Assembly: GCF_003171515.1 (NCBI RefSeq)
Contig: NC_089390.1
Coordinates: 4,712,001-4,776,000 of the forward strand
DNA: 64,000 nucleotides
Direction: 5' to 3'
DNA from: Pyrenophora tritici-repentis
Lineage: Eukaryota; Ascomycota; Dothideomycetes; Pleosporales; Pleosporaceae
Shown in pieces: positions 1,739 to 62,100 of this stretch (the stretch's first letter is position 1; each line of letters begins with the position of its first letter). The notes beneath the pieces were generated by a model. It made no database searches and was not told where the DNA came from. It saw only the letters and a program-made list of their open reading frames with translations. Both the position numbers and the translations under genes were made by a program.

Positions 1739-4740
<3,002 letters not shown>

Positions 4741-14726: not shown

Positions 14727-16709
14727 ATTAAGGCACAATGGTAGCTGAGGCAGGCTGGAAGAGGTCGGCCTTGCGAGCGTTGCATTTGGCGCTGAGGAAG
14801 TGGGTTTGAAGATGGCAGGAAGATCACTGAATCTTGTCAGGCGCGTCTGGAACCAGCTGGTCGGGAGAAACGAGAACAAGGTTCCATAAACCTTTTGAGG
14901 TTGGGCAGTACCAGCCCTTGCATGTTATGCTTTTTATGTAAGCCATAAGCTTATCTTTTCGTCCGCAACGAATCACTGTCTACTATTCAACCACCACCGT
15001 CAGCAGTGAGGCTCAAATACCGACCACATAGGTCGAATAGTGCATGACCCACGTAACAGATAGGTGTCATGTCTCCGGCTCAGAACGGGTAACTTGCTGG
15101 CCAACTCTCTGGACTAGCTTACGGCACAGCAGTATTCGAGACACCAGGTTGCATTCGTGATGAACGTTTTTAATCTATTCTGTCTCACGACCAGCCATCT
15201 CATATTGAAAGAGGTTAGAAACGCGCCGATACTCCTCTATCAGTCTGGAGATCCGTTTCAAGGATGCACCAATAGCTCATCCTTGCAAAGAACGACCATA
15301 CCGATCAAGAGCCGGCGGCTACAAGACGTAGTCTCCCGAATGACCGGTCCGAGTGGGAACGAGTGGGAATTCCCCGGGCGAATAGCAAGTTAGTGGCATC
15401 GAAACAAACAAGAAAGAGTCAGTCGTCGGCCAGTGAGTGAGCCGAAAGAGCCTCAATAGCCGCGATCCAACATGGCCGATCAGACGCCACTGCTAGTACA
15501 CGTGTCAGTTAGAAGACATATCGAATGGCACAACGAGCTTCAAGCCTTCGTGGTATCAGGAGCATATCGCCAAGTGTTGGATGTTGACAGAGGGCTGGTA
15601 TCAGCTATCGCAATTTTCTTTTCCATGTGACCAGCATGGGATGGTCGCCCAGCATGCTGTCAAACCTCACCTGCTTCCCCTGTGGAAACTGTCGTCACGT
15701 GAAGCTTGCATCATGCATGCAAACTGCTATATATGTGGACATCTTGCACCAAGATCAGATATGCACGATAGAAGCGACGAAGAATATTCGAAAAATAGAC
15801 GACTAGACGACGTGGCTGAATTTTACTCGACCATGATAGGCCGCTATTAATAAGCGGGGGTTCTTAATCGGCTCCGCGCCTAACGATAGCGGGCCCCCGC
15901 TATCGTGCTCCCCCAAAGAAAGTCGAAACTGGATGTTTGGCCGACTCCACGACCATCCACCCCGCGCAAATTTCATGCCATCGCCTCTGCGGCTAGAGCG
16001 GCGCATCGTCATTCGCCCGAGAAGAGGATCCAACACTCCTCCTCCGACTTTGACGTCTTCGCATTGGTTTCAAGGCACGATGAGGCTCGAAGCGCCTATA
16101 GCAACTGTGTCACATCGTCATCCCAAAGTGACCTCATGGAGTCACGGAGGGGCCAAAACTAAGAATAAGCCTGCATGCATACGTTTTTAATACCACGGCG
16201 GCAACAGGATACGCTAGGCTACGCTGCCGGCCCTGCCAGCGGTTATACATCTGTTCTGTACGGCTACGCCCTCGCCGGCGCTCCGGGCTGACAGCTCCCG
16301 ACGACTACGCCGCACGCAGGTGGAGTGGGAACGGCCCTCAGCCGCCTCTCTTGGCGAGCTTTCGTCGTGGTTGGACTTGGTCCTTGCACCTAGCTCGTGC
16401 CATGAATGGTGGGTGAACTCGGTAATGCACATACTATCCAGAAGGATGGCATAGTTTGCATGTACGCCGCAGTAACAGCTGTGTTTGATGTTTCGAGCAT
16501 GCTCCAATCATGGATTTGGTGGGTGGAGGCTTATACTGCGGCTCAGTGTTGTTATAGTGTGGTGATGGTAAGGGTACACAGAATCATTCTGCAGCTTCTA
16601 TCTAATTCGGCATTCCCATTTCCAAGACGCTTGCCTCTCAGCTTCACTTCTTCCTTTTCTCTTATTTAATAGTGGAAAGCATAATCATAGTCAGCTTCAC
16701 GTTAGTTCG
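14727..16709. other. Intergenic region of 2 kb with possible transposon remnants
   Basis: No intact gene is seen. A perfect inverted repeat lies at 15883-15906, followed by a stretch (15907-16150) with CG-rich sequence unlike its surroundings. A second GC-rich block lies at about 16190-16360. Both look like decayed pieces of repeats or mobile elements, but no transposase or reverse transcriptase frame is visible and no terminal repeat pair was found. Confidence 0.35.
15883..15906. repeat. Perfect 11-bp inverted repeat with 2-nt spacer
   Basis: Arm ACGATAGCGGG (15883-15893), spacer CC, then the exact reverse complement CCCGCTATCGT (15896-15906). The upstream flank carries a related sequence, CCGCTATTAATAAGCGGGGG, at 15841-15860. 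It could form a stable hairpin or be a remnant of a terminal inverted repeat. No associated open frame was identified. Confidence 0.8.
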
Positions 16710-19187
16710 ATGCCCTACCCCATTACCATACCGGGGTCTCCATCGAACATGCCTCAACCAGAGCGTAGTCCCATGCACTGGCCCACCTTCCCCGACATTC
16801 CAATCTATCTCGATACAGGGAACAGCCGTATCGCGCCCAAGTCTTACGGAACGACTCCCACAACACCCACAACACCAGAGATACTCCCTCATGGCCGCCC
16901 TACATATCTGAGCCCGGCCCATATCAACGCCCCACCCATCACCCCAGCCGAACCGAGCCCAACTACTACCATCGAGACATCTTCTGATCATCGATCAGTG
17001 GTGTGGCCAATTCCAGAACCGCCTCCAGAGGTGGTGAGGCAGCAGCCCCGACGACCACTTCTTCGCTTTTTCCCCAGTGATCGACCGCGTGTCCGACTTG
17101 ACACGGCTTTTCCCCAGCCCCCATATGAGGTCTCAAACCCAGAAAAGCAGAGCGACAACGACCGCAAGTCACACCTTGGTCTAGGCATCAGTGGTGGTCC
17201 ACCTAGACCGCCATCGATCCGGGTACAGCCCCCGACATTCGAAAACGAGAAAGCAGACCCGTCTGCGAACATTGCACAACGCATCGAAGAGAAGCTTTGG
17301 AGCTATAACTCTTCAGGCAACGTCATCGAACGATGGCTACTCGAGATAGTCAGTTGGTTGATCAGCGCTGTGTGCATGGGCGCGATCATCGCAGTGCTTG
17401 TCGTCCTCAAGGACAAGCCATCCTCTAAATGGCCCTTCAACAACCTCGGTATTACCCTGAACGCCTTTGTTTCTGTACTCTCGCGAGTTGCAGGTGCTGC
17501 TCTTTTACTCCCTGTCGCAGAAGCTCTTGGGCAACTGAAGTGGAGCTGGTTTATCCGAGGAGATTCGAAGAAGATGTGGGATTTCGAGATGTTTGACAAC
17601 GCATCTAGAGGACCGTGGGGTGCTTTCCTCTTGCTCATACACACTAAGGGAAAGACCATCGCTGCTCTTGGCGCCCTAGTCACAATATTCGCCCTCGCAT
17701 TGGATCCTTTCTTTCAGCAGGTCGTCAGCTTTCCCACGCGCTGGACGATGCAACATACAAACAGCTCTATCACGCGAGTTGTACGATATGAACCAGCATA
17801 CAATGTTCAATACGAAAATGGCGAAGCTGTAGCTGAGCTAGATGCGATCATCGGGAGCGTTGCTGACCCATTTTTCATCAACAACGGAACCCAGCCAATG
17901 CCTTTCGGAAATGGAACTCGCGCAGACGTACCTATATCATGCCCTGGCAGCAACTGTACTTGGCCAAGCTATGAAACACTCGGTGTCTGTAGCCAGTGTG
18001 TAGAGGTACCGACTCTCCTCAACTTCACGTGTATGTTCACAAGGGTAGACTGGACTTCAAAGCTCAATGCTACGGAGTCTTCATACCCCAAGGCGAACGT
18101 ATGTGGGTACTTCCTCAATTCCACTAGTGACAACCCAATCCTCATGTCTGGCTACATGGTTGACGAAGCTGGAAACAAATCTGGTGAGGTTTTGCTGTCG
18201 CGGACGCTACCGTTGACAACCAACTATATGCGAGAAGCACTCTGGGGGGATGGCTCTATCAACTTCAAGCATATACGAAACCCCATCGTAGATGCCTTGA
18301 TCTCTAGCGCCTCCAATAACACTGACGATGTATTTTCGGATAAGATGCCGGCATTACACGAATGCGTCGTGTCTTGGTGTGTCAAGACTGTCCAATCGTC
18401 TTACTACTTGGGCACATATCAAGAAGTGGTCACGAATGTCTTCCTGAACGACACGCAAGGACCATATCCCTGGCATACTACCTGGTTGGCAGACGAAGGG
18501 TATGCGCTCACTGACTATTTCGAGAATGTCACTATATCTGCACCACAAACCGGTCAAAGCTTTCCAGAACACGGATGGGGAGTCAGTAACGATACTATGC
18601 TCAACACAGTACTTATTTTCGATCGCGTCTTTCCTTCTTTTACGACGTCTACGAACGAATCCGATGTTCCAGTCCTTCGCTGGAGAACTGGAAGCCCAAC
18701 CTTGGCGAGGACATTGTTTCCAGAATTCAACCCTTGGTTATCACCAAACAATATTACACGACACATGGAAAGGATGGCCATTTCAATCACAAACGCAATT
18801 AGATCTTCAACAAGCGGCGAGACAGTATTCGGACATTCCTATGAGAACGAGATCTATGTCGAAGTTACCTGGGGCTGGCTGAGCCTACCGCTTTGCCTTC
18901 TCTTAGTCAGCTTTATATTTCTTGTTTCTACGGTCATCAAAAGCGCTAGCGAGAAAGGCCAAGTGAGCATAAGGAAAAATTCAGCGATTGCTACATTGCT
19001 CTATGGACTTCCCGATCATTATCAAAAACAATTGACAAAGTCGAACTCAAAAGGTACTCCAAGAACGAAAGCGAAAGATCTCAGGGTCAGACTATCTGCA
19101 ACAAGAGGTTGGAGAAGCTCTGGAAATATTTTCACACCCTTGACTCCAAAGGCACCATCAAACTTGCCACCACCAGGGTGGATTTGA
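16710..19187 (+). CDS. DUF3176 membrane protein, paralog 1 (825 aa, intronless)
   Basis: A single exon of 825 residues. The first roughly 190 residues are a proline-rich cytosolic-type tail absent from the two neighbours. The DUF3176 region starts near residue 195 (IEEKLWSYNSSGNVIERWLL). It has three membrane spans (about 208-232, 248-272 and 315-340) with signatures LGQLKWSWF, WDFEMFDNASRGPWGA and KGKTIAALGALVTIF. A long loop with many N-glycosylation sites and paired cysteines follows (CPGSNCTWPSYETLGVCSQC), then a final span near 717-742 and a basic tail. The loop is probably extracytosolic, by inference from the Cys and Asn-X-Thr pattern. The family is widespread in filamentous ascomycetes and its function is unknown. 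It is the first of three same-strand paralogs. Confidence 0.9.
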   Translation: MPYPITIPGSPSNMPQPERSPMHWPTFPDIPIYLDTGNSRIAPKSYGTTPTTPTTPEILPHGRPTYLSPAHINAPPITPAEPSPTTTIETSSDHRSVVWPIPEPPPEVVRQQPRRPLLRFFPSDRPRVRLDTAFPQPPYEVSNPEKQSDNDRKSHLGLGISGGPPRPPSIRVQPPTFENEKADPSANIAQRIEEKLWSYNSSGNVIERWLLEIVSWLISAVCMGAIIAVLVVLKDKPSSKWPFNNLGITLNAFVSVLSRVAGAALLLPVAEALGQLKWSWFIRGDSKKMWDFEMFDNASRGPWGAFLLLIHTKGKTIAALGALVTIFALALDPFFQQVVSFPTRWTMQHTNSSITRVVRYEPAYNVQYENGEAVAELDAIIGSVADPFFINNGTQPMPFGNGTRADVPISCPGSNCTWPSYETLGVCSQCVEVPTLLNFTCMFTRVDWTSKLNATESSYPKANVCGYFLNSTSDNPILMSGYMVDEAGNKSGEVLLSRTLPLTTNYMREALWGDGSINFKHIRNPIVDALISSASNNTDDVFSDKMPALHECVVSWCVKTVQSSYYLGTYQEVVTNVFLNDTQGPYPWHTTWLADEGYALTDYFENVTISAPQTGQSFPEHGWGVSNDTMLNTVLIFDRVFPSFTTSTNESDVPVLRWRTGSPTLARTLFPEFNPWLSPNNITRHMERMAISITNAIRSSTSGETVFGHSYENEIYVEVTWGWLSLPLCLLLVSFIFLVSTVIKSASEKGQVSIRKNSAIATLLYGLPDHYQKQLTKSNSKGTPRTKAKDLRVRLSATRGWRSSGNIFTPLTPKAPSNLPPPGWI

Positions 19188-19296
19188 TTCCATTCTATTC
19201 TACATACTCCGCAATAGGATATGGAGAAAATATTGATACACTTCTTAAGAAATTATTAGAACTAATACCATCTGTCGCCGCTTTCACGAACACTCA

Positions 19297-19880
19297 TCAC
19301 CGGCTTATTTCTCCACTGGGGTCTCCTCCGCAGTGATTCCTATTTGCCACGTTTACGTTCTCTTCTGTCAAATCAACATCCCGTCGGCCTCCAGGGCGTA
19401 CACGAATCGATCGCTCGACCTTCTCTTCTGCTGGCTCAACATCCCGGCCTCCAGGGCGTACACGAATCGATCGCTCGATATGATCTTCTGTTGACTCAAC
19501 ATTCCGCCCTCCGGGGCGTACACGAATACTACGCTCGACGTTCTCTTCCGTCGACTCCACGTCCCGGCCTCCAGGGCGTACCCTAATAGAACGTTCGGCC
19601 TTCTCTTCTGTCGGCTCAACGTCCCGGCCTCCAGGGCGTACCCGAATCGAACGCGCGACCTTCTCAACCATCGAGGTCCTCTCCAGGATGTTGCTGATAG
19701 CGCTGGTCACCGGGAAGGCATTGCGACGATCCGCAGTTGGAAACACGGGACTAATCTATGTCACAAGTCAGATGGACCAACGGACTCAGAATTTGTAGCA
19801 CTAACGTTGCTGGGCAGTACTGGCGCTGTGATGGTGGGGAGTACCAAATACGCGGCGAGAAAGAGAGTATGTCCGCGCAT
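19297..19880 (-). CDS. Predicted secreted protein with five tandem 20-residue repeats (177 aa)
   Basis: I reconstruct two exons, 19880-19806 and 19755-19297, around a 50-nt intron (donor GTTAGT, branch-like CTGAC, acceptor CATAG), both in phase 0. The first exon encodes a convincing signal peptide: basic start MRGH, hydrophobic core TLFLAAYLVLPTI, then a TAP-type cleavage region. Residues 26-57 are a spacer containing an Arg-Arg pair (TADRRNAF). Residues 58-158 are five repeats of the form (V/A/I)-(A/E)-R-S-I-R-V-R-P-G-G-R-(D/N)-V-E-x-x-E-x-x; the last repeat has one extra Arg. A short tail with one cysteine ends in GEISR. A TATAAA sequence lies about 20 bases before the ATG. I recognise no known family. 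A secreted effector-like protein or a repeat precursor cut by proteases are both possible. The classical Lys-Arg Kex2 sites of known fungal repeat precursors are absent between units. Confidence 0.6.
19357..19659 (-). repeat. In-frame coding minisatellite, five units of 60-63 bp
   Basis: Four 60-bp units and one 63-bp unit, read on the minus strand, each encoding one 20-21 residue protein repeat. The most constant part spells S-I-R-V-R-P-G-G-R. Units differ at scattered bases, mostly in the T/E-rich second half, so the array is not freshly expanded. All units keep the frame. Confidence 0.92.
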
Positions 19881-22800
19881 GATGACAATGGTTAAAGCTT
19901 TATATTGTTATACAGGAGAATGGTTAGAGTATGAAGAAAAGAATCGTTGGCACAGCCAAGCAAGAGTTTGTTCCCGATGGGGTGGTATGCTGGGATGTGT
20001 TGTATTTGGGATGGTATCTCGAATGTGGGAACAGTCCACGACTTTATCCACGACCCTGGATTCACAGCAACGCTTGACGACATCGCATCACACATCACAC
20101 TCATTTACACTATCCCTACACTATCCGTCCACGTTGCCTCCACGGCGCTTCGAAACGCGGTGACTATCTCAACGATAACCGCCTTGGAAGCCACCGACTC
20201 GACGCGGAATCAAGGGGCGAGCAGCGTATTGTTCATGCCGTGTGACAATTAAACAGTCATTGGGGGTGATCCCGGGAAAGCATAATGATTGGGGTACGGA
20301 TTCGGCAAGCTGAAACGCAAAAATCGATGCGACTGGAACACAAGGCGTTAGATGGGAAAGGCTGAAAGCCTGACTACGCGTCGCAATGCATCCCGCAGCC
20401 TTTGGCAACTTTCATCACATCGGGTTATCACACTACAAGCGCTGGAGGGGCTCTCTACAAGGCAATTCGGGAGAGTCGAGATTTTGGTAAGTACATCACC
20501 CGCAAATCCCGTAGTCCTCATCAACTTCGTCAACTGCCAAAACGATTTCTGACCAATCGACAGGTTTTCTCGGTGTGACGTGGCTTGGCGGCGTTTTGGA
20601 CTTACCCCGGGAGCTGAAGCGATTGGCTATTCATTATCGGTACCTTGCACAACGGCGGCCTAGTCACATATTACCCGTGCACGTGACGTATCCCGGCGTT
20701 ACGCTTTCAGCGAATTGTTGATTCTAGTAAAGACTCAATAGCTTGTGATTCAAGAGACATAGAGTAGCCACTGAGTCGCCATCATTCTCATTCTCCCATA
20801 CTAGACAACATCCCTGTACACTCATAAGACTTCGTTTGCATCATGCAGCCTCTAGCACTGAGCGTGCCGTGATTGCATGCAGTGTACTAATATTTACGTT
20901 TTCCACATATCTTTCCCTTGCTGACAACGATACATCATAGGATTGCTAAAGAGTGAATGTACACTGGCAAAATTTGAGGAGCCGTCTGGTATTACACATT
21001 TATTTACTTAGCCATGCTATCGTATCAATATTCATGCTTCGCTTTGTGGGACTACTTTGTCTTCAGATGTCGAAAAGATACCACCAATAGTGAGTAGCCA
21101 TTAGGCGCCCACAGCCCACACTGATGTTGGCATATCACACTCACCCGATGCAATCTGCCTGCACGTCAACCTTATCAACACGAACTCCACGCGACTCAGT
21201 CCTTGACTTATCTGGACCAGAAAAGAGTGCTTGAGCGACTGCTACGAGCGCTACAGATCTGATCACGTCATGGGAGTATGACTGCGTGAATTTTAGCACC
21301 TGCATCAAGGCAATGCAATGCACCTTGATCACGGCGCGGACACCTCAGCTCATTCTGATGTTTTCTTTTCTCAACCCCAGACTTTGGTTTCTGCTAAAGC
21401 TGCAGCCACGGAATTTTTGCCACACCTCGCTTCCACATGTCACGAAACGTGTTCCACTCTCTCACACATGCACTTCTTGTGTGCTTTTGTAACCACAGGT
21501 TTGACAACCAGTCGACTTTAATCTTTGACGGGTGCATTCTGTTGTCAGAGGTTTCTCGGGTGCACGCTCAAACTCCCCACCTTGTGCGAGGTGTTTTGGG
21601 CCAGAGTTCACCCAAAGCTCAGAGTCGCAACATCGCGCATGCGATATGATAGAATCTGGTGAATACAGAGAAGAAATGACCCACTAAAACCTAGTCGCAT
21701 CGCCTCCTGGGCATCACACGTCAGTGCCTCGTGTGCCAATTTCGTAAAGTCTCAGTGCCTTTTGTGCGGATTCTACAGTACCGTACCCGATAGATTTATC
21801 GGCCCATGAGTTTGATGATGTATCTCTTGTACCATGGATATGAATTCCAACGACATATGCAGTGAGTGTCAACAATGTGAAGGCGTCAAATAATATTCAC
21901 TGATACCCTCTCTAACAGCCTTGGCAAGCTTTGCTAATGGCGACAAGGCCCTCAAAGAGGCCGAGGTATGATGACATACAGTACGTACCCGGTACCTACT
22001 TCGTGTCCCCTAGCGTGTCGATCCGTTGTCGGCACGGTGGACGCAACGGCGGGCCGCAGGCACTGGGCCTGCCCTCTAAAGACACCCATTCGCTTCAAAA
22101 TGACCGCTCGTACAGTCAAGACTCAAGTATTATACAATTTATGCCAAGTTTTGAGTCTTATCTGTAGTGTCGCATTGATGACAGACCGCTTTGACGAAGC
22201 CCTTGTTCGGCTATACCGGTCCCTAGAGCGCGATACACATGACCCTCAAGGGTACATGCATCTTCATGATTTGACGCACAGATCATGTTGTTGGCAATGA
22301 GCTTACGACCTTATGGGGCTAGTATGCAAAGGAAATGATGAGACGAAACGCATGCACACCACCAGCTCTTGCCCAAGTGTGAGAGTGAGTAAATCCGATG
22401 CCGACTCGTTTTCCCAGGCTCACCCCAATTGACGCCGGATAATTCATCCGGCTCTATCAAACACCTCACTATCTCATGCGCACTTCAACGCTCGTAACAC
22501 GGCCCTATTCAAATGTCAATGCGCAAAGCCGAACGATAATCCCGGCTCACAGCCGTCCATTCCCTCATGCAGCGGTGAAGTCCACCGAACTACCATATCT
22601 GTCACAGCGCTTCATATCCCATATGCCTACCGTTTCAACAGTAAAAAATACTAAGCCGACCGCGGCCTCCTGCCAACAGATGCTAAAACCTCCGAGGCTT
22701 ACAGCACGGTCTTGTATTGGATCAGGAAACTGCCCTCATAGTCCCCAGAGAAATTATCAGAGGTGTCGGATCGTGAGTATCGGTAGAGACGTCGGCTGCT

Positions 22801-24535: not shown

Positions 24536-26758
24536 ATGTTACGTACACACGACAGCCACCTACCCCTTTCTCGCCTCGAAGCATCATTTTCCAATGAATA
24601 TTCAAGTAGACCACGTCCTCCGTCATACCGAGCCTCCGTGCACGACCAGCCTTCACTCGACATCCCAGGACGCATAGAGCAAAAGCTAGCACAATACAAT
24701 GCATCCCAGAGCATATACAAGCGTTGGCTATTCGAGATTATCAGCGTAACAATTAGCGCAGTTTGCATGGGTATGAAAGCTCCATTCTTTCTTCTCGTAT
24801 TCTCACGTGCCTAAGTGCAACAATAGGTGCAATAATCGGATTGCTGCATTATCTCCATGACCAGTCCCTCAATAAATGGCCTATGGGCTTAACAATCATC
24901 ACAGTGCTCTCCAAGATCGCATCAGCAGCACTTATCTTGCCAATCTCGGAGGCCATTGGACAACTGAAGTGGACTTGGTTCCATGGGAAGAAATCTAGGG
25001 ACGTGTTCGACTTTGAAATCTTTGATAAAGCATCACGCGGTGCATGGGGCTCAGTCATGCTCTTATTCCGGACGAAGGGCAAGTCGCTTGCTGCTTTGGG
25101 TGCACTCTTGACAGTGCTCCTACTGGCAATCGATACCTTTTTCCAACAAGTGACTGATTTTCCAGAACGCTGGCAGCCACGAGGGGATAGCTTCATTCCG
25201 CGCATCGTTCGTTACGAACCAACCATCGAAACTGCGTACGATAATCTCAGCGATGTTCCAATAGCACAAGTAAACGGCGAATTAAGTAGGGTGATAAAAC
25301 CGTTTTTTTACGACAAGAACGGTACCCAGCCGATTACGACCGGAAATAGTACTCAGGCCGAGATACCACTAATTTGCCCTACTGGTAGATGTGACTGGCC
25401 GGCTTATGAGACCTTGTCAGTTTGTAGTGCTTGTGAGGATGTATCGAATCTTCTCGAGTACGCCTGTCTCACGACGAGAATGGACTGGATGAAGAACTCT
25501 ACTGGCCCAGGTACAGAGAGAACATATCCAAATGGTACGTGGGACCCCAAAAACGCAATTGAAATTTATCAGAAACAAAGATGGAGGGTCCTCATTCCAG
25601 CCTGATTCGGACCGGATACAGAGTCGTCATTGAATCAAAGCTGTACCGAACCACTTGCTAACCATTCATATCACAGGAACTGCTTGCGGTTTCTTCTTGA
25701 ATGCTACCAGCGAAGACCCGGTCCTAATGTCGGGTTATCGAGTGGGAAATGGCACGCCATCGTTGCAGGGAGAAACCCTTCTCATGCGCACTCTACCGCT
25801 CATCACAAACCCCTTAAGACATCCCTTCTACGGCAGCGGAAGCATCAAATTCAAACACATTCCATACCCTATCTTGGACGCTTTGATTGTGAGCTCACCA
25901 GATGGTTCAGTAGACAGCGTCTACGAGAAAAAGCCCCCGGTTGCTCAAGAATGCGTACTTTCGTGGTGCGTCAAAAAGATTCGCTCATCCTATGTATCTG
26001 GGGGGTATGAAGAGCAGATATTGGAGACTTTCGAGAACACGACCAGCGTTGATTGGCCATGGTGGTCCCAAGACTTGCCAGAGTTGGACATGTTTGAGCT
26101 GGAGTTCAAGGCGAACATTACCATACAACCGCCATGGATGAACAACAGCAAGACCGCCTTTGGAGTCTCCAACGAAACATTCATGGACGTTGTCACAATC
26201 ATGGACGAGGTTTTCCCTTCGTTCATCACCGTGTCCAACGCATCAGCGCCACCATTCATAAAAGTTCGGACAAGCTTCACAGACAAGGTTGTGTTTCGCC
26301 CTGTTCGCTTCAGCCCATGGCTTGCTCCTAACAATGTGGCTCACCATCTGGAGCGGATGGCTCAAGCCGTGACCAATGCGATCCGATCCTATCCTAGCGA
26401 TCATGAGCTTATTAAAGGCACTGCGTATATACGAGAGACGTACGTTGCAGTACATTGGGCGTGGCTCACCTTCCCTCTCGCCATGCTTCTCTTGAGTATC
26501 GTGTTCCTGGCCGCCACTATACTGAAGACTTCAAGCAATACCCACAACGAAGTCGGAATCTGGAAGACATCTGCTCTCCCTTCTCTGGTGTACGGTTTGC
26601 CAAAGGAAATGCAGAAGGATCTCATTTCAACGGCAGCTCCGGTGAGCTCAACAAGCAGAGGTCCGAAGAAGGTGCGGATCAAGTTATCTCCACAGCAAGG
26701 ATGGAGAGTCTCTGGTCATGTTCAAGCCGGGCCAGCAGCACCACCCGGGTTCATATAG
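24536..26758 (+). CDS. DUF3176 membrane protein, paralog 2 (674 aa)
   Basis: Three exons, 24536-24770, 24827-25534 and 25677-26758, give 674 residues. Family marks are IEQKLAQYNASQSIYKRWLF, LGQ/IGQLKWTWF, FDFEIFDKASRGAWGSV and KGKSLAALGALLTVLLLAID for the three N-terminal spans. They are followed by the cysteine- and N-glycan-rich loop (CPTGRCDWPAYETLSVCSAC, then CGFFLNATSEDPVLMSGY). A last span (WLTFPLAMLLLSIVFLAATI) and a short basic tail complete it. It lacks the proline-rich N-terminal extension of paralog 1. Introns fall at VCMG|AII and YPNG|TACG, positions uninterrupted in the other two paralogs. The second intron (142 nt) is longer than is usual here. The upstream frame ending near 24491 is probably leader sequence. 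Function unknown. Confidence 0.88.
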
Positions 26759-27626
26759 TAGTCATAGCTATGTCATTAGGAAATCAAATGTAAGCGTTCT
26801 TCACAACGTCGCCAGGCCATCCCGAAGCTCATCATAATGGATTTATTTATATCCTCTCTTCTCGACCACAGGTACAATGGTCTGGGGTACTCACTACGCT
26901 CTCATTCCGACATGATCGGTGCAAATGTCCACCCTTTGTGTCTTGTCAACTATATTTCTCGTATATACCAGAGACCTTATTCTTTCCGTGAGCAAATGCA
27001 CGTCATGACTGCATGGAAATATGAGAGTTAATTCCAAAATAGGTTAGTCATGCTACTTAGTTAGTGGCACTTGGGCAGCACCGAACTTTTGGGCGAACCC
27101 GCCCCAATTCACCACACGGTGGATAATTAGGTTCATCCTAGCACCGCAGTGTGCGGTATTCAGCCGCATGTCGGTTTGTATCCGATTGTAACATAGTGAT
27201 GACGGGTGTACCTGGAGGGGTTTGGGGGTGGGCCTATACGGGGCTGCGGCGCTAAAAGCAGAGCCCCTATAGGTACACGATAACGAAGCGCACGATCTAG
27301 AATAATGTCGTAAGTAAGCTTGCAGTCGACACATGGTACCCTGCAAAATACATCATGTCGGCTACAGGCTCAGCGCTAATTTCAGCATTGTCAACGTTTT
27401 CTGTAGCACGGCAAAAACTCCGGCGGCTGCGTGTACAATATAGCCTCAGAGACGCATGCTTGCTATCGTCGCCTTCCCTACTCTTGGCTTTCATATACAC
27501 TGCTCCCCCCCATCATGACATAGCGCACGAAATAGTTTCCTATCGGTCACTTCTAGGGCCCAATCAACTGCACATAACCGGTGATCAACAAGATCTTTTA
27601 CGGCTGACGCAAAGCCCCCCCTCTCG
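26759..27626. other. Intergenic region between DUF3176 paralogs 2 and 3
   Basis: 868 bases with no gene recognised. It should contain the 3' end of paralog 2 and the promoter of paralog 3. Open frames at 27355-27819 run into the start of paralog 3 in a different frame and look spurious. Confidence 0.4.
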
Positions 27627-29711
27627 ATGGCTACGCAATACGAATCCGGAGACACTCCAGCGCAAAATATGCGTAACTTTGAGCCCTCGACAACATATCT
27701 ATTCCATGAAGATAAGAAACAGAAGCCGTCGCTGGATTTTACCCAAAGAATCGAGAGGGCTTTGGCTAGATATAATGCATCAGACAATGTATTCAAGAGG
27801 TGGCTATTTGAAACGTTGAGCTGGCTCGTTAGTGCGTCTTGCATGGTTGCGATCATTCTTATAAACCTCCGGATCAAGAGCAAGCCCATGGTCCAGGAGC
27901 CTTCGTCCCTCAACTGGATTAATGTACTGGGAAAGATATCCTCTGCGGCTCTTATCGTCCCAACCACCGAAGCGCTCGGGCAATTGAAATGGAATTGGTT
28001 CCACAAATCGAAAGCGATGTGGGATTTTGAGATATTTGACAAGGCTTCTAGGGGCCCTCTTGGTGCCCTTATGTTGTTGTATCGAACAAAGGGTCGCTCA
28101 TTAGCTGCACTTGGTGCACTGCTAATTGTTCTACTTCTTGCGATCGATACCTTCTTCCAGCAAGTCGTGGACCTTCCCGATCGGTGGAAGCTGCATGCCA
28201 GCTCCGGCGTTTTACCTAGGACGATTCATTACGTTGGACAAGTACCCAACGCCTACGTTGACGGCGTGGAAATGCTTTCAGACGATAAAGATATGTTTCA
28301 CACCGTAGAGAAGTTTGCATATGGAAACGGCACACAACCAGTTCCGTTTGGTAATGGTACACGTCCTGATATACCCCTCGTAAGTACAGTCCTCGACAAG
28401 CACTGATTAGTGATGCATTCGTATAGCTAACACTTCTTTCAGTCTTGTCCGACAAGTAACTGTACATGGCCAGTGTACGACACATTGGGAGTCTGCAGCC
28501 AATGTGCCGATATCTCAGAGCACCTTGATTTTGCCTGCATGGTGAACACGGTTGACTGGACATCTTCCTTGTCGGGTGGGTTTATGGTAGAAGGCGGCTA
28601 CCCGAACGCGACCATGTGTGGCTACTTCCTCAATATCACAAGCCACAACCCTATCCTCATGTCTGGATACATTGTCAACTCGAATACATCGGCTTATAGC
28701 GAAACGCTAATCATGAGGACTCTGCCTTTGACAACAACCCTGTTACATGAGCCTCTCTATGGAAACGGATCAATTAACTTTAAGGAGTTTCGCAACACCA
28801 TCCAGGATGTGCTCATCGTGTCGGCTGTGAACGGATCAGCAGCATCTGTTCACCGTAACGAGACGCCTATCGCACAGGAGTGCGTATTGACTTGGTGTGT
28901 CAAGACAATGCAGTCTAGTTACAGCCTAGGCGAGTACAAAGAAGAGATACTGGAAACTTTTATCAATACAACATCTGGACCCTGGCCTTGGATAGCATCT
29001 TCCTTCTCGGATGGAACATCAAATGGGACAGATTCTTTCTTTCTCCAAGATATCCACATCGACATTGGTATTACGCCGAGTGGGCGTAATATCTCGGGGT
29101 ACGGCATGGCCAATTCAAGCGTTGCGTCTATCACGGTGGGCTTTACTGACGTCTTCCCTGCATTCGCAACCGTAATGAACGAATCTTCTGTTCCGTTGCT
29201 GCGGTACAAGACTTGGATGGCCAATGTAGCATGGAACCGGATCCTCGACTTCAACCCATGGATCTCACCCAACAATGTCACAAGGCACATGGAACGCTTT
29301 GCTACAGCAATGACTAATATCATACGCTCATCCGAAAACATGGAGATGCTTTCCGGAGACGCATGGGTGATGGAGACCTTCATCTCAGTGCGATGGGCAT
29401 GGCTCAGTTTCCCGTTCATACTCCTCGTTCTCACTCTCGTTTTCTTGGTTTCTACCATCATGAAGACCTCAAAAGACAACGAAACGAGATTATTCAAGAA
29501 TTCAGCTATGCCGACTCTCATCTACGGTCTTCCCAAAGAGACCCAGGGCCAGTTTACCAATTCATCAACGTGGAACAGCACAAAGGAAACGAAAAAGGTC
29601 CGCATCAGGTTGAACCCGAAGACTGGATGGAGAGTATCGGGCCAGAGTCAACTGAGTACATCACCGCAGCTACCGCGGCCCGCTGTCCAACCTCATCATA
29701 GCTGGATATGA
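27627..29711 (+). CDS. DUF3176 membrane protein, paralog 3 (673 aa)
   Basis: Two exons, 27627-28379 and 28443-29711, give 673 residues, almost the length of paralog 2. The order of parts is the same: a short N-terminus; RIERALARYNASDNVFKRWL; three spans including LGQLKWNWF, WDFEIFDKASRGPLGALML and KGRSLAALGALLIVLLLAID; a glycan- and cysteine-rich loop (CPTSNCTWPVYDTLGVCSQC, CGYFLNITSHNPILMSGY, AQECVLTWCVKTMQSSYSLG); a final span (WLSFPFILLVLTLVFLVSTI); and a tail with a KKVRIRLNPKTGWRVSG motif shared with the other two. The single intron interrupts DIPL|SCPTSNC, which is continuous in paralogs 1 and 2. The start is the first ATG of the open frame. Function unknown. Confidence 0.88.
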
Positions 29712-38701: not shown

Positions 38702-41449
38702 TCACCCACCCACAACCACATTTCTGAATGCAGCCCCAACGCCCACAAAACTATCACGTCGCGTTTGGCTGTGCTTTTCCTTATCTGCAATCCTCCTCTC
38801 CCCCTTGTACACCACTGAGCGCTTGCGTACAATGTCGTCGGCCAGGCTGTTGTCCTTGTTCCGTTCGGTGCTGCTCACGACCCGAGCATTTGGTAAGACG
38901 GCGTCCGTTTCCACATCCCTCACGACTGTGTGTGAATTTTCCTTCTTCGATTCATCTCGCATGCTTATCGTGTGACTGCTCATGCATAAGGATTCCGACG
39001 CGACAGCATGCGTCGGCTTTCCTGCGCCATCGAATGGCTGGCAGAAACATACTCTCAAAGCATGCCCGGCAAGCGGTCCGAGAAGCCCTATGTCGCGCTT
39101 ACCTGGCACATTTCGTTTTCGCCTACCCTTTTCCCCGGCACTTTCTGCCCCACTTATCGTTTCGCGAGGCATACTGACGTACGCAGTTGCTGCGGCTCTC
39201 CGGTCTGCAGTGACACGCTTACGAAGGACCCTCCCCTTTCCACTTGTTGTGCAGTGTGCCATGATAGCAGTAATCGTTCGGGCTTTGTGTACTCTTGCCT
39301 CATTTTTGAGGTCCCCAACAAGGGATGCTATTGATCTGCATCTTCCGTAGTGTTGGCGTAACCTGGTCTTCTCGTACGAATAGCGCGCCCGAGAATAGAG
39401 GGCGATGCTTTCGGATCGCATCATACCATCACAGCCCTTTACCGCTGGAGTAGGCACTATGAACGACTCTGTAGAGCTAACTGTAGAGTCGATCTGCGAT
39501 TGCTCAGGACGTCTGTAGTTGTGATGGTACCGTAGATGTGCGGGAAGGGGGGCTGAAGACGTGGGTGGTGTAGTCATCGGTCGCAGAGGTCTCGGAGGCG
39601 GCAGACACGTTTTTGGTGGAAATGCCGTGTAAGTTGCCATAGCATTGGGATTGCCGTAGTACGAAGTTCTGGTAGGCGAGCCGCTGAACTCCGATGCGGT
39701 CGTAGTGTCGGGCGTCGAACTGTCCTCTGGCTGGATGAGACTGCCGGACGGCGAGAAGAAAGATATTTTTGGTGTGTCATAATTGGGACGAACGATACCC
39801 GACGCTGCAGCTATTGGTAGTAGTGTGGTCAGGGCAGACGAGGTAATGGAGCGACGGGGAGGCTGCGTCTCAGTGGCTTGCGTAGCTTCAGGAGACTCGG
39901 AGGTTGAGGCTTGCCGCTCGAGCTCTGCCATTTGAGGTGTAAACCATACTGGCGCTACGGGTGTAGTCGACTGGGAGCGACATACTGGGTGAGGGAAGTC
40001 GTGCTGAAGGTCAATGTCGACGCCGACCACTGGTCCGGAGTAGGATGTGGACATGGTACAGAAGCTTGCATTTCGGCTGGCTTGCGTTGTACAGTCATTC
40101 TCTGCCAGCGGATGGGGGGTGTTACCTAAAGTGGAGATGGCATAGAAGACATTCCCAGTACTACAGCCACTCTGCGCCTCATCTCGTGGTTCGGGGTGTA
40201 CAAGACGCACAGAAGGGGACCTTTCGCGTGGATGGGTTACAGCCGGAGGTGGCAGCAACTGGGGTGTGGCCACAGACGCAGTGTTTGGTTCCAACGCATA
40301 CGGACGAACATTGAGCAAGGGTAGGTCCAAAGAAATCGGAGGAATACGATACGCTGTGGAAACGTCCATTTGCCTATTCTGGTGGTCAAAGCCATGCGTT
40401 ATAATGGCGGTTGAAGATGGCATGGGCACATCATATGGCTTTTCACATCGACCATGTCCTACGGGTCTGTCATAGCCCAAGAGAAAAGTTTCAGAAGCTT
40501 GTAGTTGGCTGTATGAAACAGCTTCATCGGCTTCCTTGCGGTGCTGGCGGTGCTCAGGGATAGATGATGCATCATGTGTTGAGGACGAGCAGGACGAACG
40601 GGAGCGTGTTCGCGAGGCAGTTCGGACATTGTGCAGAACCCCACGAAAGAAGGCTTTCACCGTCTTGGTACTTGCATCGTACTCGGACTCGCCGGTGTCA
40701 TATGCTGCGGACTGGGAGCGCTGAGGGATAGTGGGTACAGAAGGTGTAGCGGGCTCGTTTACCGGGAGCGTGTTGCCGTAACCCTTGTACGAGGGCTCTT
40801 TGGGCGTCTCCTGTGTCAGGCCTAGCAATTGTTCCAGTTGGGCATCTTCCGTGATGCGCTGAAGACGAGCGTGCTCGTCCGCATCCGAAGTCAGCTTGAG
40901 GGAAGTACGGCTTGGTGACGTCGTTTCCACCCCTCGCAGCGAAGGGAAGCGTCCAACGCTCAGCAGAGAGCCGCGTGAGTTTAGCGTCGAGTACGAACCT
41001 TGCTCTATAATAGTGGCGAGTGGCGCGCCATTGGAGCGATTTGCGAGCCGCACGGCAAGATTGTAGGGGACGGCTCGACCTCTGGTTTGTTGTTGTTGCT
41101 GATTTCCGACGTCTTCAACCATGTCTGTACAGCTCATGTCACGGCACGTGTAACCATAGTCGTCCTCTGGCACAACGTCATGACGGCTGCTCCCTTCTGT
41201 GTGCGGCTGCGGCTGCGGCTGCAACTGATACGACCTCGTATCGCTAATAGCGTTGTAGTAGGCGAAAGGATCTGTACTCAATCCCTGGTCAGAGCAGCGC
41301 TGGGGGCTGGCCTTTGATGCCTCGGCCAGATCTGTGGATGCAGACTGGGGCTTGTATCGCGCATTTGCATTGTTAGTGCTAGACGCGGGTTCCTGGCGGT
41401 TGCTTCGATCCAGTAGAGTGGGGTTGCGGGGTTGAGAGGCAGGCATCAT
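38702..41449 (-). CDS. Large intrinsically disordered protein of unknown function (915 aa)
   Basis: A single uninterrupted frame of 915 residues starting MMPASQPRNPTLL. The sequence is dominated by Ser, Thr, Pro, Arg and Gln, with a QPQPQP run (CTG/CGG repeat on the plus strand near 41210), a QQQQQ tract and many SP/TP pairs. There is no signal peptide, membrane span or recognised fold. The C-terminal 200 residues are basic with several Lys/Arg clusters (KRVTADRRAA, KGRRKRNVPGKRD) that could act as nuclear signals. Such composition suggests a phosphoregulated scaffold or signalling protein, but this is inference. The long open frame and the lack of comparable opposite-strand frames support it as a real gene. 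Confidence 0.7.
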   Translation of the reverse strand: MMPASQPRNPTLLDRSNRQEPASSTNNANARYKPQSASTDLAEASKASPQRCSDQGLSTDPFAYYNAISDTRSYQLQPQPQPHTEGSSRHDVVPEDDYGYTCRDMSCTDMVEDVGNQQQQQTRGRAVPYNLAVRLANRSNGAPLATIIEQGSYSTLNSRGSLLSVGRFPSLRGVETTSPSRTSLKLTSDADEHARLQRITEDAQLEQLLGLTQETPKEPSYKGYGNTLPVNEPATPSVPTIPQRSQSAAYDTGESEYDASTKTVKAFFRGVLHNVRTASRTRSRSSCSSSTHDASSIPEHRQHRKEADEAVSYSQLQASETFLLGYDRPVGHGRCEKPYDVPMPSSTAIITHGFDHQNRQMDVSTAYRIPPISLDLPLLNVRPYALEPNTASVATPQLLPPPAVTHPRERSPSVRLVHPEPRDEAQSGCSTGNVFYAISTLGNTPHPLAENDCTTQASRNASFCTMSTSYSGPVVGVDIDLQHDFPHPVCRSQSTTPVAPVWFTPQMAELERQASTSESPEATQATETQPPRRSITSSALTTLLPIAAASGIVRPNYDTPKISFFSPSGSLIQPEDSSTPDTTTASEFSGSPTRTSYYGNPNAMATYTAFPPKTCLPPPRPLRPMTTPPTSSAPLPAHLRYHHNYRRPEQSQIDSTVSSTESFIVPTPAVKGCDGMMRSESIALYSRARYSYEKTRLRQHYGRCRSIASLVGDLKNEARVHKARTITAIMAHCTTSGKGRVLRKRVTADRRAAATAYVSMPRETISGAESAGEKGRRKRNVPGKRDIGLLGPLAGHALRVCFCQPFDGAGKPTHAVASESLCMSSHTISMRDESKKENSHTVVRDVETDAVLPNARVVSSTERNKDNSLADDIVRKRSVVYKGERRIADKEKHSQTRRDSFVGVGAAFRNVVVGG

Positions 41450-44400
41450 GCTCGTGCCCTGTCATCGATATATTGCCAAAGATGAGATCCGATCGATGTT
41501 CAGGACATAATGTGCATAACTGTGGGACCCTACTGATGGCAGAGCGGCAGTGTTTGGGGGTTGCTGAGAAGCTGCAAGTTTTCTTGCCATGTCCTTGCCA
41601 GTATTGCATCTTTTAGGCAAGCACACAGGCACACACTTCCTGAGTAGCTGTCCGTCATGTCAGTCCTGCCTGTCCGACAGTCTTCAATTCAGTCGCTGCC
41701 GCCCGGAGTGACCGTGGACGTGGTATCACCTAGGACGCCGTGTGGGCACATTGAGCTTAGCCAGCGTGATATGAGAAGCTAAAGTCCCATTTTGCTTGGT
41801 GCCTACTAGCCACAAGCGCAGAGGAAGATATCTGACTCGGCAGCCATGCGCAGGGCAGCCCAATCAAAATGCTCCATCTTCCAAGCCCCCAACACCCAAG
41901 ACAGTACCGATTGTCGCAATCGACATGCAAAAAAAGCAACCAGACCAAACTACCTTTGACTCCATGTCCAACCTTTTCGTCAGCATTGTCGCTTTCTTCT
42001 GCCGAACCCAGTCATGATGCTTGCATGCATGCTCGCTGCGAGACCAGGTCAAGGTGCTCTCGGGTCCGATGCCTCAACCTGTCCTGCCCCAGTGCTGCCA
42101 AGAAGTAATGAGCCATGTCCATTGGCAACGCGGCTCATTCTAACCCAGCTGTACAAAGTGCGAAGACGAGGACACCTTCCTGCTGCCTAAACTTGCCCAC
42201 TACGACTCGCCAGCCAGATGATATTGACGTGGGTCTTTGGATAGCGTCCAAACTATAATCCTGCAGCCTGTACACTGCCAGCCCGTCATCTGACCCGCTG
42301 CCGTTCAACGAGCTTGCTACGGGAGCAAGTGGGCCGTTTCCTACGCTTGTTTGTATACCACATGCACTAAAGCGGAAGGGGTCGTCTTTTTCCCCAGCCG
42401 TCCGCTTGCGGCGTCAATAAGACATTCTAACTTGATGTGAAGGTCCGGCACTCACTCAGCCTGTGTTTAGCGCTGGAACGCCAGTGGGGACTGATCATGT
42501 TTCCCTTCAAGAACACGGCGTATCAGGCCCCGCAACGGTCCTACGTCAAGATGCCGAACGCGTGTGGCTGTTAGCCTATCATCGACCCCTTGTAGCGCGC
42601 CCTCTCTTCCAATAGCGCCAGCCAAAAACATAAACTCCACGAACCTGATCCATTCAATAATCATGTACCGTGTGCAATGTCCCCAGGTATTGAGAAATGC
42701 TGCAATACTAGGCTGTATGCGTGTTGGCCAATGAGTCAATGCCGGTTTTTCCAACCCTTACTTGATGTCTGATACGTCAGGCTAGCAATCCATCCAGTGA
42801 GCGTCGTGCATGGTTTAATTACTCAAAATAGCCACTCATGATGGTTTTCTCTGTCATCTGAGCCATGCAGAAGCTGTATGCAACATCAAGAGCCTCCTTC
42901 AGGCATCCAACCGGTCTCAAATTCCGTCCAGTAGAACGACTTGTCGACAAACTCCAATACTTCTGGTGCATCCCTTGGTCAATGGGTAGCTTTTTAATCA
43001 ATCAAAACTTGCCGAACTACGTAGCGCGAAAAAATATCTCAAATGCAGCCGTAGAAATGCCAAGTCTATAATGTGCTCGATGCGCATAACTCCTCCAGAG
43101 ACATGTGCAATTGGACCTGGACATGGTCGGTAGCGATGATGCATACCGGCAAACCAGGTTTAAATCATCGGCTCATTCATTTCCGGTCACTCTTCCACTA
43201 TCCATGCAACCTCTTCAACTGAACCCGTTGGCCGCCTGAGATTACCATCGGTAGACCTAGGATAGAATGGCGATCCCTGCCTCGTGGGTTTGGTAACGAG
43301 TACGACGTCCACCACACTCAAAGCTTGTCGCAGACTACGTTCTGGAATGCTGCACATGTGAGACCAACAAGTACTTTTCTGTGGGGCGTGATCCACAAGC
43401 CTGTATCTCGAGACCAACATCCACCTATTTCCGAGTACACGAGTCGACCTTATGCAGCCCTGTCATTCCACGTCGCACGCACTGTCTCCCAAGGCGTCTG
43501 CACCCGCACCTCTCCGATTTGATCTGAGGTCAGCAGTTTGGAGGATCTCGACGTAGCGAGCCGACACCCGTCAAGACCGCTACATGCGCCATGCAATCCA
43601 GCCGTATCACCCTCGGCCCTGTTCGCAGCTGCCATGAGGCCCGTCAAAGCACTGCAGTGACGCAGTCCCGTCTTCTCGTGCAGTAATTGCTTATTCTCCT
43701 CTTTAACCAGCGCTCAAGTCCGTTGACCTGGCTTTCGGAACTCAGCATGCCTTTGCTTCATCGGCGGCCCGAAGTCTGACATGTGGACGTCGTTTGGAGA
43801 GATGGACTAAGCATGCGCTGTTGGGATCAGCAACTAAAATCCAGTACGTTCCATGTCTAGTAATCGATAGGCCATGACAAGTGCGCTGCTCAGCCCATGT
43901 ATGTGAAGCAAACACTCTTGTGACAAATCAAGGCAACAGTATCTTACGCATCTACTTGCCGTTACTGCACGAGAGGGTAGGCGAGAGCCAGGTGACCCAC
44001 CTTGTCCACGTCAATAGATCGCCGAGAACCAAGCATAATACCTGGGATTCGCTAGCTGCATGTCAAGCGCGTCAATGAGATGGCGTTCCGGTCCGAACGG
44101 AAAGAAGTCAGATCCGTCCTTAATCTTCAGGAAGTAAAGCCCCAGCGCATCCCACTGCTCTGGCACTGTGGCGTTTACCCCGTGTCATGGCGAGAAAGTA
44201 AGATAACCGGCCATCAAGGTCACATGACAGCCACTCCAGGCCAGGGGTCTTATCCAAACTGTCGGATCCCGAATGGGGCTATAAAGACGGTAGGCAAAGG
44301 CCATTTCCTCGTGCATTTGGCCACCACGAAACGAAGCGTCGATGTTCGAATCGCCGCGTGAAACACAATCCTCAAAGGCCAAGGCCTCGAGCATGACTTT

Positions 44401-59163: not shown

Positions 59164-62100
59164 TTACTCGCGCAAAGTATCGTCCCAGCCACCTTGCTCG
59201 GTGAGGTGATTCTCTACTCGTGTTTTGCAGTCTTCCAAACCCTGGCCAAGCGCTTCATTCCATTGGCTCTCCACCAGGCCGACCTTCTCCTTCAGATCAT
59301 CCGTGAGTCGTCGTTCCTCGTCTGCCCTAATGGCTTTCATCTCTTGGTTCACTCCTGCCAGATCCTCGCCCTCCATCAGTCGCTGTGTCTCAAGCAGTCG
59401 CGAGCCGGCCGTCATGACTCCGGTCTTGACCTCATGCAGCAGACACAGCAAATTGATCTGAGATTCAATAAACTGATGTGCAGAGCGACCCGCATGCGCT
59501 AGAAGTGTGTAGAGATACTGCAACGGGTAGTCATGGTATGCCGGTGTTTCTTCATACTCTTGCGGTGGGACCAGAACTTCGAAGCCCTGTAGATTCCGAG
59601 GAACCTGTTGCACAATCTCCAGCAGTCCAGGCGCAATATCCCAAAATGCAGATAACTGAGCCTCGACACCGCGAGTGACGTTCTGCTCAATGACGTTCAT
59701 GAGGTCCTCGTACCGTTTGAGTGTTTCCTTCTCAAAAGCAACCTTGCGGTCTTGTCCATCGCGCTGGAAGAATGTGGTGGCTTCCTTGACCTTCTGATCG
59801 TTGTTGGTTTGGACATAGGGGAGAACGATGATATCCCGGTAGAGGTCGTTGCGCTCATCTTCCAGCTCAAACATTTCCTTGTGCAGTTGTTCCCGTGCTT
59901 CAAACAGCCATTTGAGCAAAGTGAGCATCTCTAGGAGTTCTGGTTTCTCATCACCTTCTTCCTGCGTTTGGTTAGGGTTTGGCTCTTGCGCTTCACTGGA
60001 CAGGCGCCCTTTGAGATGCTCCATCGATGCCGTGGCCTTCGTGATACGCTCGCAGAACATGGCGTGCAGGGGATTGGCCACCTCGGCCTGGAAGCTGTCG
60101 AATATCCATTGAACTACGTCTTGAGCTCTCTGATGCTCACGATTCTCGAAATCTGCCTCTGCCTTCGCAGCCTCTGCAAATGACATGACACCATTTCGCA
60201 GATTGTCCTGGATATTGTACCGGAGTTGTGCCCTTCGATCGGATAAGGAAGCATTCTCCTGCTCTTTCCTTGCTTCGATCTTAGCCTTGAACTTTGCCTT
60301 TGTATTCTTGACTTCATCCAGTTCCGAAAGACTGCGCAAGCTGCTCCGTATTGTAGTCAAGTCAGGATGACTATTGTTTACTGCGGGATGATGTCGAGGG
60401 TAGGATGGCGGAAGCGTGACCAGTCTCGAAACATCCAGCTTGTGTGGGTCAGGCGTTGTTGTAGTCGACCTTGCATAGTACCCATAAGGTTGTTGTTGTG
60501 GTAGCTGTAGACTCTCTTCATGTAGACCAACTTTCTCGGGAGGGTAATCGTTGGGTCCATACGCTGGTCGACTACTAGACTCGCCTCGTTGGATTGGAGT
60601 GTTCTGATCCATACCTGCCCACTGTAGATTCTCGCGGGCCTCTTTCGGCAAACTCATGTACTTGGACTCTCTCTTACTCCGCTCCAGTCTTCTGTCACCA
60701 CCCACGCCTGAAGAGCCACCGTCGCTTTCCCACCAGCGGCTTGCCGATCGACCTCTGGAGTCTTGTTCGTCAGGAATGGTACTCATAGCCATGCTTGGAA
60801 TGGGCGAAAGTGATGGGTGATAATTATTAGTCCATGAGACATCTCGGGCTTTTTGGCTGGATGCACTGGACGGAGACGCTGGTTCGGTGTGCGGCGTGAA
60901 GTTCCCAATAGAAGATGCAGGGCTAGCAGCAGTAGTCGGCATCGAGTTGGAGAAACGGGTATCCGGAGATTCGCCTGTGACTGAGCCTTGAGATCTTCTG
61001 TTACCACGTCCCGCAGGGGTGACCTGAGTATTTGGTGTAGCCGATCTGCGACCGGAGTTACCGTATGAGCGCCACATATCCCTTGTCAGATCCATGATAT
61101 CTCCAGCCATTGCATCAAAGGCTCCAGAGTAACGGTCGCGGCGAAGCCTTGACTCGGTAACAATGAATTCCGCGAACAACTCCAGTCTATCTTGATCTGT
61201 TTCAGCCGCCATCTCTTTCTCAATGAAGCTTCGATGTCGGTCCATGGCGGCACGGGCAAAATTATGAGCGTCTGATTGTCTCGGTGTGGTTATCGTCGAA
61301 TCCTGTACTGCGACATGTGAGGCGTTTGGCGTGTGAATAGTACCATCGTTTACAGCTCCTGATTGATGAGTCAGGTCTGTGTTCCTCTCATCGGCATAGA
61401 TACGAAGTGGTGGAGTAGGTAACGCTTTGGAGGGGAGCGAGACTGGAGCTTTCTGGGCTGAACGACTGAGATATTCCATACCTGGCGAGAAAGGTGGTGT
61501 TGGGACAGCCATGAATGCGCCCCTTGAAGGTGTATCCACTCGAGGTGTAGAGTTTGAAGACCCAGGATCGTCAAACAAATGTCCGCTTCGTGGTGATCGA
61601 AGAGCACCACTGCTTCTTGGAGTGCCTCTTGTGACAGCACCGCGACGCGTCAATCCGCCTTCTGGCGTTCCGAGATCAAGATTCGCTGGTTTGGCTGCTT
61701 CTGTATCTAGATCTTGTGCCCAGGGGTTATTGCTTGGCTCTGTACGGTGCTCTCGAGCTGCCCGACTCTCACTTCTTCGTTCTCGAATTCCCCGGGTACT
61801 TGTGTCACGTTTGTGAGGTGTGCGCTGGAGATTACTACTGGATGCAGATATTGAAGTGATGGTAGTTGGCCCTGATGAAACGGAAACGCTCCCACTTTCT
61901 GATACCGGTCCAGGCTGCTCACCTGGACAAACAGCACGGGGGCTCGTGTCAATGTGTAGGCCATGGGCTGCCGGGGATTTTGACCGCACATTAGTAGGCT
62001 CATCTTGCCAGCCCATGGGTGTCGGAGGAATGGGCGTCAGCGTTGTTTGACCCGGTCTTCTTGTAGGTGGTGCAGAAGGGAGCGTAGGTCCTCGGCTCGA

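What the first reader, a model, noticed from the sequence alone, without database searches (positions are those of the whole stretch)
19297..19880. Hidden gene for a secreted, five-repeat protein beside the DUF3176 array
The repeats are visible as an open frame, but the true start is only apparent after adding a short first exon that supplies a strong signal peptide through a 50-nt intron in phase 0. The product has five 20-residue units built on R-S-I-R-V-R-P-G-G-R. Known fungal repeat precursors (ustiloxin-type RiPPs, Kex2-processed repeat proteins) share the plan of signal peptide plus near-identical units, but use Lys-Arg cut sites. Here the units join at E-R or A-R, so this would be a different processing logic or a structural repeat effector. 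No modifying enzymes typical of fungal RiPP clusters are adjacent.
Basis: partly seen in the sequence, partly recalled or inferred. Interest (0 to 1): 0.75.

Follow-up and report, generated by a model that had tools for sequence, protein, structure and literature searches.

The report
Secreted five-repeat protein of tan-spot fungus
A small gene in a wheat leaf-spot fungus encodes a probably exported protein built from five near-identical charged units; the gene is real and already in public databases, a relative was found only in a barley-infecting cousin, and its job is unknown.

Summary
The gene is real. Two exons (19880-19806 and 19755-19297, minus strand) joined over a 50-nt intron give a 177-aa protein. 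It is letter for letter the public model A1F94_001146 of Pyrenophora tritici-repentis, so it is annotated, not hidden. One relative was found: PTMSG1_00089 of P. teres f. maculata. It conserves the leader across the splice join and has six intact repeats. IRVRPGGR is identical in all 11 intact repeats of the two proteins, although nine distinct nucleotide changes separate the five window cores.

Both proteins have exactly two KR/RR (Kex2-type) sites, DRR before the array and GGRR closing the last repeat, and none between repeats. The likeliest product is one secreted chain carrying +4 cores separated by acidic, length-tolerant spacers. The protein fails the published test for Kex2-processed repeat proteins, and the nearest UstYa match on the contig is about 546 kb away. 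It resembles unprocessed repeat-containing secreted effectors such as Rsp3 in plan only. Secretion, cleavage, expression and function are untested. Verdict: a narrowly distributed new member of a known kind.

The parts
19806..19880 (-). Exon 1: start codon, hydrophobic signal-like stretch (residues 1 to about 18) and residues to 25
   Evidence: 9-residue hydropathy maximum 2.72; aligns with P. teres relative
19756..19805 (-). Intron, 50 nt, phase 0, GTTAGT...CTGAC...TAG
   Evidence: the spliced product equals public model A1F94_001146; no transcript data seen
19297..19755 (-). Exon 2: rest of pro-segment, linker, repeat array, tail, stop codon
19723..19728 (-). Arg35-Arg36 (ADRR), conserved Kex2-type site before the array; Asp at P3 is described as unfavourable for Kex2
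   Evidence: P3 remark from PMC8528282 section 4
19384..19653 (-). Repeat array: first core R60 to R149; five copies of RSIRVRPGGR with acidic spacers
19381..19386 (-). Arg149-Arg150 (GGRR), conserved Kex2-type site closing the last repeat

Best explanation
A gene for a repeat-containing protein that is very probably secreted. Shown by comparison: the gene model, the homolog, the invariant core and the two bracketing Arg-Arg sites. Inferred: a signal peptide leads it into the secretory pathway; Kex2 cuts after DRR (residue 36) and after GGRR (residue 150), removing a pro-segment and an acidic tail; the product is one mostly disordered chain of about 114 residues that displays the cationic motif IRVRPGGR five times between acidic spacers. 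It would work by multivalent binding, to a polyanion or a protein partner at the hyphal surface or in the plant apoplast, as a lineage-specific surface protein or effector that works like Rsp3. The partner and the effector role are guesses.
For: IRVRPGGR identical in 5 of 5 and 6 of 6 intact units of two species, while flanking residues and spacers vary. Nine distinct nucleotide changes among the window's five cores leave the protein sequence the same. KR/RR occurs only at the two ends of the array in both proteins. Cores are +4 and the four spacers between them -4 or -5. Spacer length varies and AlphaFold2 finds no fold (mean pLDDT 48, pTM 0.10), in line with a flexible chain. Seven of fifteen U. 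maydis repeat effectors are likewise not predicted to be cut by Kex2 between repeats (PMC5923269, passages).
Against: No expression, secretion or binding data were seen. Asp at P3 in DRR is reported as unfavourable for Kex2 (PMC8528282 section 4) and the preferred aliphatic P4 is absent at GGRR. P. teres has two sites of the wider Kex2 motif LxxR inside or next to its array (LFGR, LGIR), and both species have ILER before the array, so further cuts are possible. The AlphaFold2 alignment held two sequences, so low confidence does not prove disorder. Only two sequences support the conservation claims.
Confidence: 0.4

Rival explanations
1. Multi-copy peptide precursor: proteases other than canonical Kex2, fungal or of the host, cut at single Arg residues (after E-R or after PGGR) and release (R)SIRVRPGG(R) peptides that act as signal, antimicrobial or host-peptide mimic.
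For: Conservation is concentrated in the core, not the spacer; cationic cores alternate with acidic spacers. Nematode GrCLE1 shows the plan of short core repeats plus spacers, cut by host proteases (PMC4617103, passages). Kex2 tolerates some residues other than Lys/Arg at P2 (PMC8528282 section 4).
Against: No dibasic site between units in either species; one P. teres junction is K-L. The core has internal Arg residues that a monobasic protease might also cut (inference). No CLE or other peptide family match above a cut-off.
Confidence: 0.22
2. Fungal wall or spore-surface protein without a role in infection.
For: Many unprocessed repetitive fungal proteins are wall-bound (PMC5923269 passages).
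Against: I saw no GPI-type hydrophobic C-terminus by eye; no predictor was run. No data on location.
Confidence: 0.2
3. Repeat-containing effector that enters host cells and binds nucleic acid through its Arg-rich cores, as CgEP1 of Colletotrichum graminicola binds DNA.
For: 27 Arg in 177 residues; CgEP1 as precedent (PMC5923269 passage).
Against: Net charge of residues 37-150 is only +4, because the spacers are acidic. No nuclear-localisation test was run.
Confidence: 0.1
4. Chance open frame over a 60-nt minisatellite.
For: A 60-nt period keeps a stop-free frame open; codon usage near neutral.
Against: Protein-level conservation in P. teres including the non-repeat leader; third-position bias and silent core changes.
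Confidence: 0.02

Closest known systems
A1F94_001146 (P. tritici-repentis) and PTMSG1_00089 (P. teres f. maculata), hypothetical proteins
   Same: The first is this protein; the second is a homolog with the same leader, the same core motif and both Arg-Arg sites.
   Different: P. teres has six intact cores plus a decayed one, G for S in its four inner cores, 20/21-residue spacing and a shorter tail.
Unprocessed repeat-containing secreted effectors, e.g. Rsp3 of Ustilago maydis (PMC5923269, passages)
   Same: Signal peptide, repeats without Kex2 sites between them, no GPI anchor noted, repeat-number differences.
   Different: Rsp3 has Cys-rich and Gln/Pro-rich regions and a proven role; our protein has one Cys (none in P. 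teres) and no tested role. No sequence relation was tested or is claimed.
Kex2-processed repeat proteins (KEPs; PMC6339444, PMC7329392)
   Same: Signal-like start, near-identical repeats.
   Different: KR/RR only at the two ends of the array, three fragments instead of at least four.
Kex2-processed pro-domain effectors, e.g. SnTox3, ToxA (PMC8528282 sections 4, 5 and passages)
   Same: Short segment between signal peptide and an N-terminal dibasic site.
   Different: Repeat array instead of a folded domain; Asp at P3; cleavage not tested.
Nematode CLE-like repeat effector GrCLE1 (PMC4617103, passages)
   Same: Short core repeats separated by hydrophilic spacer repeats.
   Different: No family match; likeness of plan only, core letters not compared in any call.

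Membership tests
Kex2-processed repeat protein (pipeline of PMC6339444, section 24) | Cleavage at every KR or RR (else KK) gives at least four fragments, with at least three similar ones | tested here: not met
   Two RR sites, no KR or KK, so three fragments in each protein; none separates repeats
Kex2-processed repeat protein (pipeline of PMC6339444, section 24) | Signal peptide by SignalP | tested here: inconclusive
   Hydrophobic N-terminus, peak 2.72 and 2.88 in the two proteins; SignalP not available
Dikaritin-type fungal RiPP (ustiloxin, phomopsin) | UstYa-family gene beside the precursor gene | tested here: not met
   Exon-level search of the own genome gives 23 UstYa matches, none in the window, nearest on this contig about 546 kb away; Pfam on all 41 window frames of at least 170 aa gives none
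Dikaritin-type fungal RiPP (ustiloxin, phomopsin) | EDYXI-like Tyr-bearing core between Kex2 sites | tested here: not met
   The only Tyr lies in the signal-like stretch (residue 11); the repeats have none; core named in PMC6339444 section 10
Repeat-containing secreted protein or effector | Secretion signal plus internal repeats | tested here: met
   Repeats by TRF and by protein; signal by hydropathy only
Repeat-containing secreted protein or effector | Acts on the host or on the host interface | not testable with these tools
   Needs expression, deletion and infection data
Kex2-processed pro-domain effector (PMC8528282) | Disorder-promoting segment followed by KR, RR or LxxR in the first half of the protein | tested here: inconclusive
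   RR at 35-36, conserved in both species; Asp at P3 unfavourable; the low-confidence model has no helix or strand in residues 19-36
Thyrotropin-releasing hormone precursor (PF05438) | Score above Pfam gathering cut-off | tested here: not met
   19.5 and 14.4 bits against 27.8

The most novel reading that the evidence does not exclude
Cereal-infecting Pyrenophora species may encode a multi-copy precursor of a strictly conserved cationic peptide, (R)SIRVRPGG(R), whose units are freed by single-Arg or host proteolysis while only the ends are trimmed by Kex2. That would be a fungal peptide-precursor logic outside the dibasic rule of the published KEP pipeline, which would miss such genes.
Probability: 0.2. 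Interest if true: 0.65.

Novelty: new member of a known kind. Interest (0 to 1): 0.33.

Why it matters
It is an unstudied, probably secreted protein whose repeat core is under visible constraint in two cereal pathogens. A search that demands dibasic sites between repeats discards it, and it has no family match, solved relative or confident fold for other searches to use. If the core peptide is the active unit, it would point to a class of fungal peptide precursors that present scans cannot see.

Tried and rejected
Chance minisatellite: rejected on the homolog and substitution pattern. KEP and dikaritin RiPP: rejected on defining features. TRH-like precursor: below cut-off. NCBIfam: one match, 10.9 bits against 43.1. 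P0003, a bacterial acetyltransferase at E 0.25, dismissed without further test. PDB profile search: 0 matches up to E 1. AlphaFold2: mean pLDDT 48, so no fold search was made. Own-genome protein search up to E 10: only the two exons of this gene; it scored three candidates. Search with the leader alone (residues 1-57): only the protein itself among 3 candidates; it missed the P. teres relative although 41 of 57 residues agree, so absence of further relatives is weak evidence. The profile search scored only the 7993 candidates sharing most words. Papers: the species-plus-tag search and the core-letter search found none. A search for the locus-tag stems listed 10 papers; I looked at passages in two, and none shown names this gene. 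PMC7329392 lists two KEP types that include Pyrenophora; their sequences are in supplements that I could not open, so I cannot say whether this protein is among them.

Full report
What was checked. The window lies in a 40,899,269-base assembly of 41 contigs. The protein match points to Pyrenophora tritici-repentis, the wheat tan-spot fungus; the size agrees with the published 40.9-Mb reference of isolate M4 (PMC5913888, abstract and passages), but that the window is M4 is inference. On the minus strand an ATG at 19880 opens exon 1 (to 19806); a 50-nt intron follows (19805-19756; GTTAGT donor, CTGAC branch-like site, TAG acceptor); exon 2 runs to a stop ending at 19297. The 177-residue product equals the public hypothetical protein A1F94_001146 letter for letter. 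The database shows it as one member sequence on 8 contigs, and no length variant came up in that search.

Is it a gene? Yes. The one relative found, PTMSG1_00089 of P. teres f. maculata (210 aa), aligns from the first residue, across the exon join and through the array; 41 of the first 57 residues agree. Among the five window repeats 14 of 25 variable columns are third positions of this frame (P 0.002; core alone 5 of 8, P 0.056). pN/pS is 0.41 in this frame and 1.28 and 3.13 in the other two frames of the strand; the three antisense frames give 0.85, 0.44 and 2.26, each with at least one stop. In the ten-residue core, nine distinct nucleotide changes leave RSIRVRPGGR the same in all five copies, among them a TCN/AGT serine switch. 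The rough odds printed (5e-5) treat changes as independent and each step of the serine switch as silent, so they are only a guide. A whole-window scan for ATG exon, fungal-type intron and about 120 open codons gave 7 open models, one with a signal-like start, this gene; the thresholds were set afterwards. Codon usage is near neutral, and 138 of 2000 random stretches of the same length are open, so neither helps much.

Anatomy. Residues 1 to about 18 look like a signal peptide (9-residue hydropathy peak 2.72; 2.88 in P. teres); no dedicated predictor was run. Residues 20-36 form a short segment ending in ADRR. Residues 37-59 are a linker, with a low-confidence helix at 41-54. Residues 60-150 are the array; an acidic tail follows GGRR. 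In both proteins the only KR/RR sites are DRR before the array and GGRR closing the last repeat. Each core is +4 and the four spacers between cores are -4 or -5; residues 37-150 are 40% charged with net +4. IRVRPGGR is identical in 5 of 5 units here and 6 of 6 intact units in P. teres, while the residues before it change (RS, RG, LG) and spacers change in sequence and length: core spacing 20, 20, 20, 20 here and 20, 21, 20, 21, 20 there. In P. teres the first and last intact cores have S like the window's, and the four inner ones have G; that inner copies were gained, lost or homogenised is inference.

Points against simple Kex2 trimming. Asp at P3, as in DRR, is reported as unfavourable, and Kex2 prefers an aliphatic P4 (PMC8528282, section 4): P4 is Ala here, Val in P. 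teres, and Gly at GGRR. The wider motif LxxR is absent here but occurs twice in P. teres (LFGR in the decayed unit, LGIR at the start of the third intact one); ILER before the array is shared. So the number of cuts is open.

What it is not. The KEP pipeline cuts at KR/RR, then KK, and asks for at least four fragments (PMC6339444, section 24); both proteins give three. The genome search for UstYa, exon by exon and with capped scoring, gave 23 matches, none in the window, the nearest on this contig about 546 kb away. Pfam on all 41 open frames of at least 170 aa in the window found genes of metabolism, transport, chitin synthesis, transcription and RNA binding and three DUF3176 frames, and no RiPP enzyme; shorter exons were not scanned. 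No paralog came up in this genome, nor a Pfam, NCBIfam or PDB relative (TRH 19.5 bits under a cut-off of 27.8).

How it most likely works. Trimming at both ends would yield one chain with five cationic IRVRPGGR motifs on acidic, length-tolerant spacers. The length tolerance and the lack of a predicted fold favour beads on a string over a solenoid, though AlphaFold2 had only two sequences. The lack of dibasic sites between units favours one chain over free peptides. I infer multivalent binding as the mode of action. Rsp3 of Ustilago maydis, predicted to be an unprocessed repeat effector, decorates hyphae and blocks plant antifungal proteins (PMC5923269, abstract and passages); it is a model for how such a chain may work, not a family to which this one belongs. 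The multi-peptide reading stays open because selection keeps the core more than the spacer. Expression, secretion and function are not shown.

Context. The stop of the gene lies 109 bases from the end of an 871-codon DUF3176 open frame that runs towards it. Two more DUF3176 frames follow on the plus strand at 24757 and 27585. Nothing found ties them to the repeat protein. GC content around the gene is ordinary (0.497 at 19000-19999).

Verdict. A new, narrowly distributed member of a known kind with one unusual point: an invariant cationic repeat core with Kex2-type sites only at the ends of the array.

Noticed in passing
16572-19187, 24757-25605, 27585-28406 (+): Three DUF3176 (PF11374) open frames on the plus strand within 12 kb; the first converges on the repeat gene with 109 bases between the stops.
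   Followed up: partly
19495-20163 (+): A 222-codon open frame antisense to the repeat gene and its promoter side; no Pfam match, taken as a shadow frame.
   Followed up: partly
3280-3398: Perfect 59-nt tandem duplication (two copies, 100% match), just upstream of the minus-strand chitin-synthase frame 1901-3274.
   Followed up: no
P0002 (P. teres f. maculata), residues about 58-83: A decayed first repeat unit ending in SRKDIESTEEK, absent from the window's protein.
   Followed up: partly
59164-62358 and 38702-41461 (-): Long open frames (1064 and 919 codons) without any Pfam match up to E 0.01.
   Followed up: no
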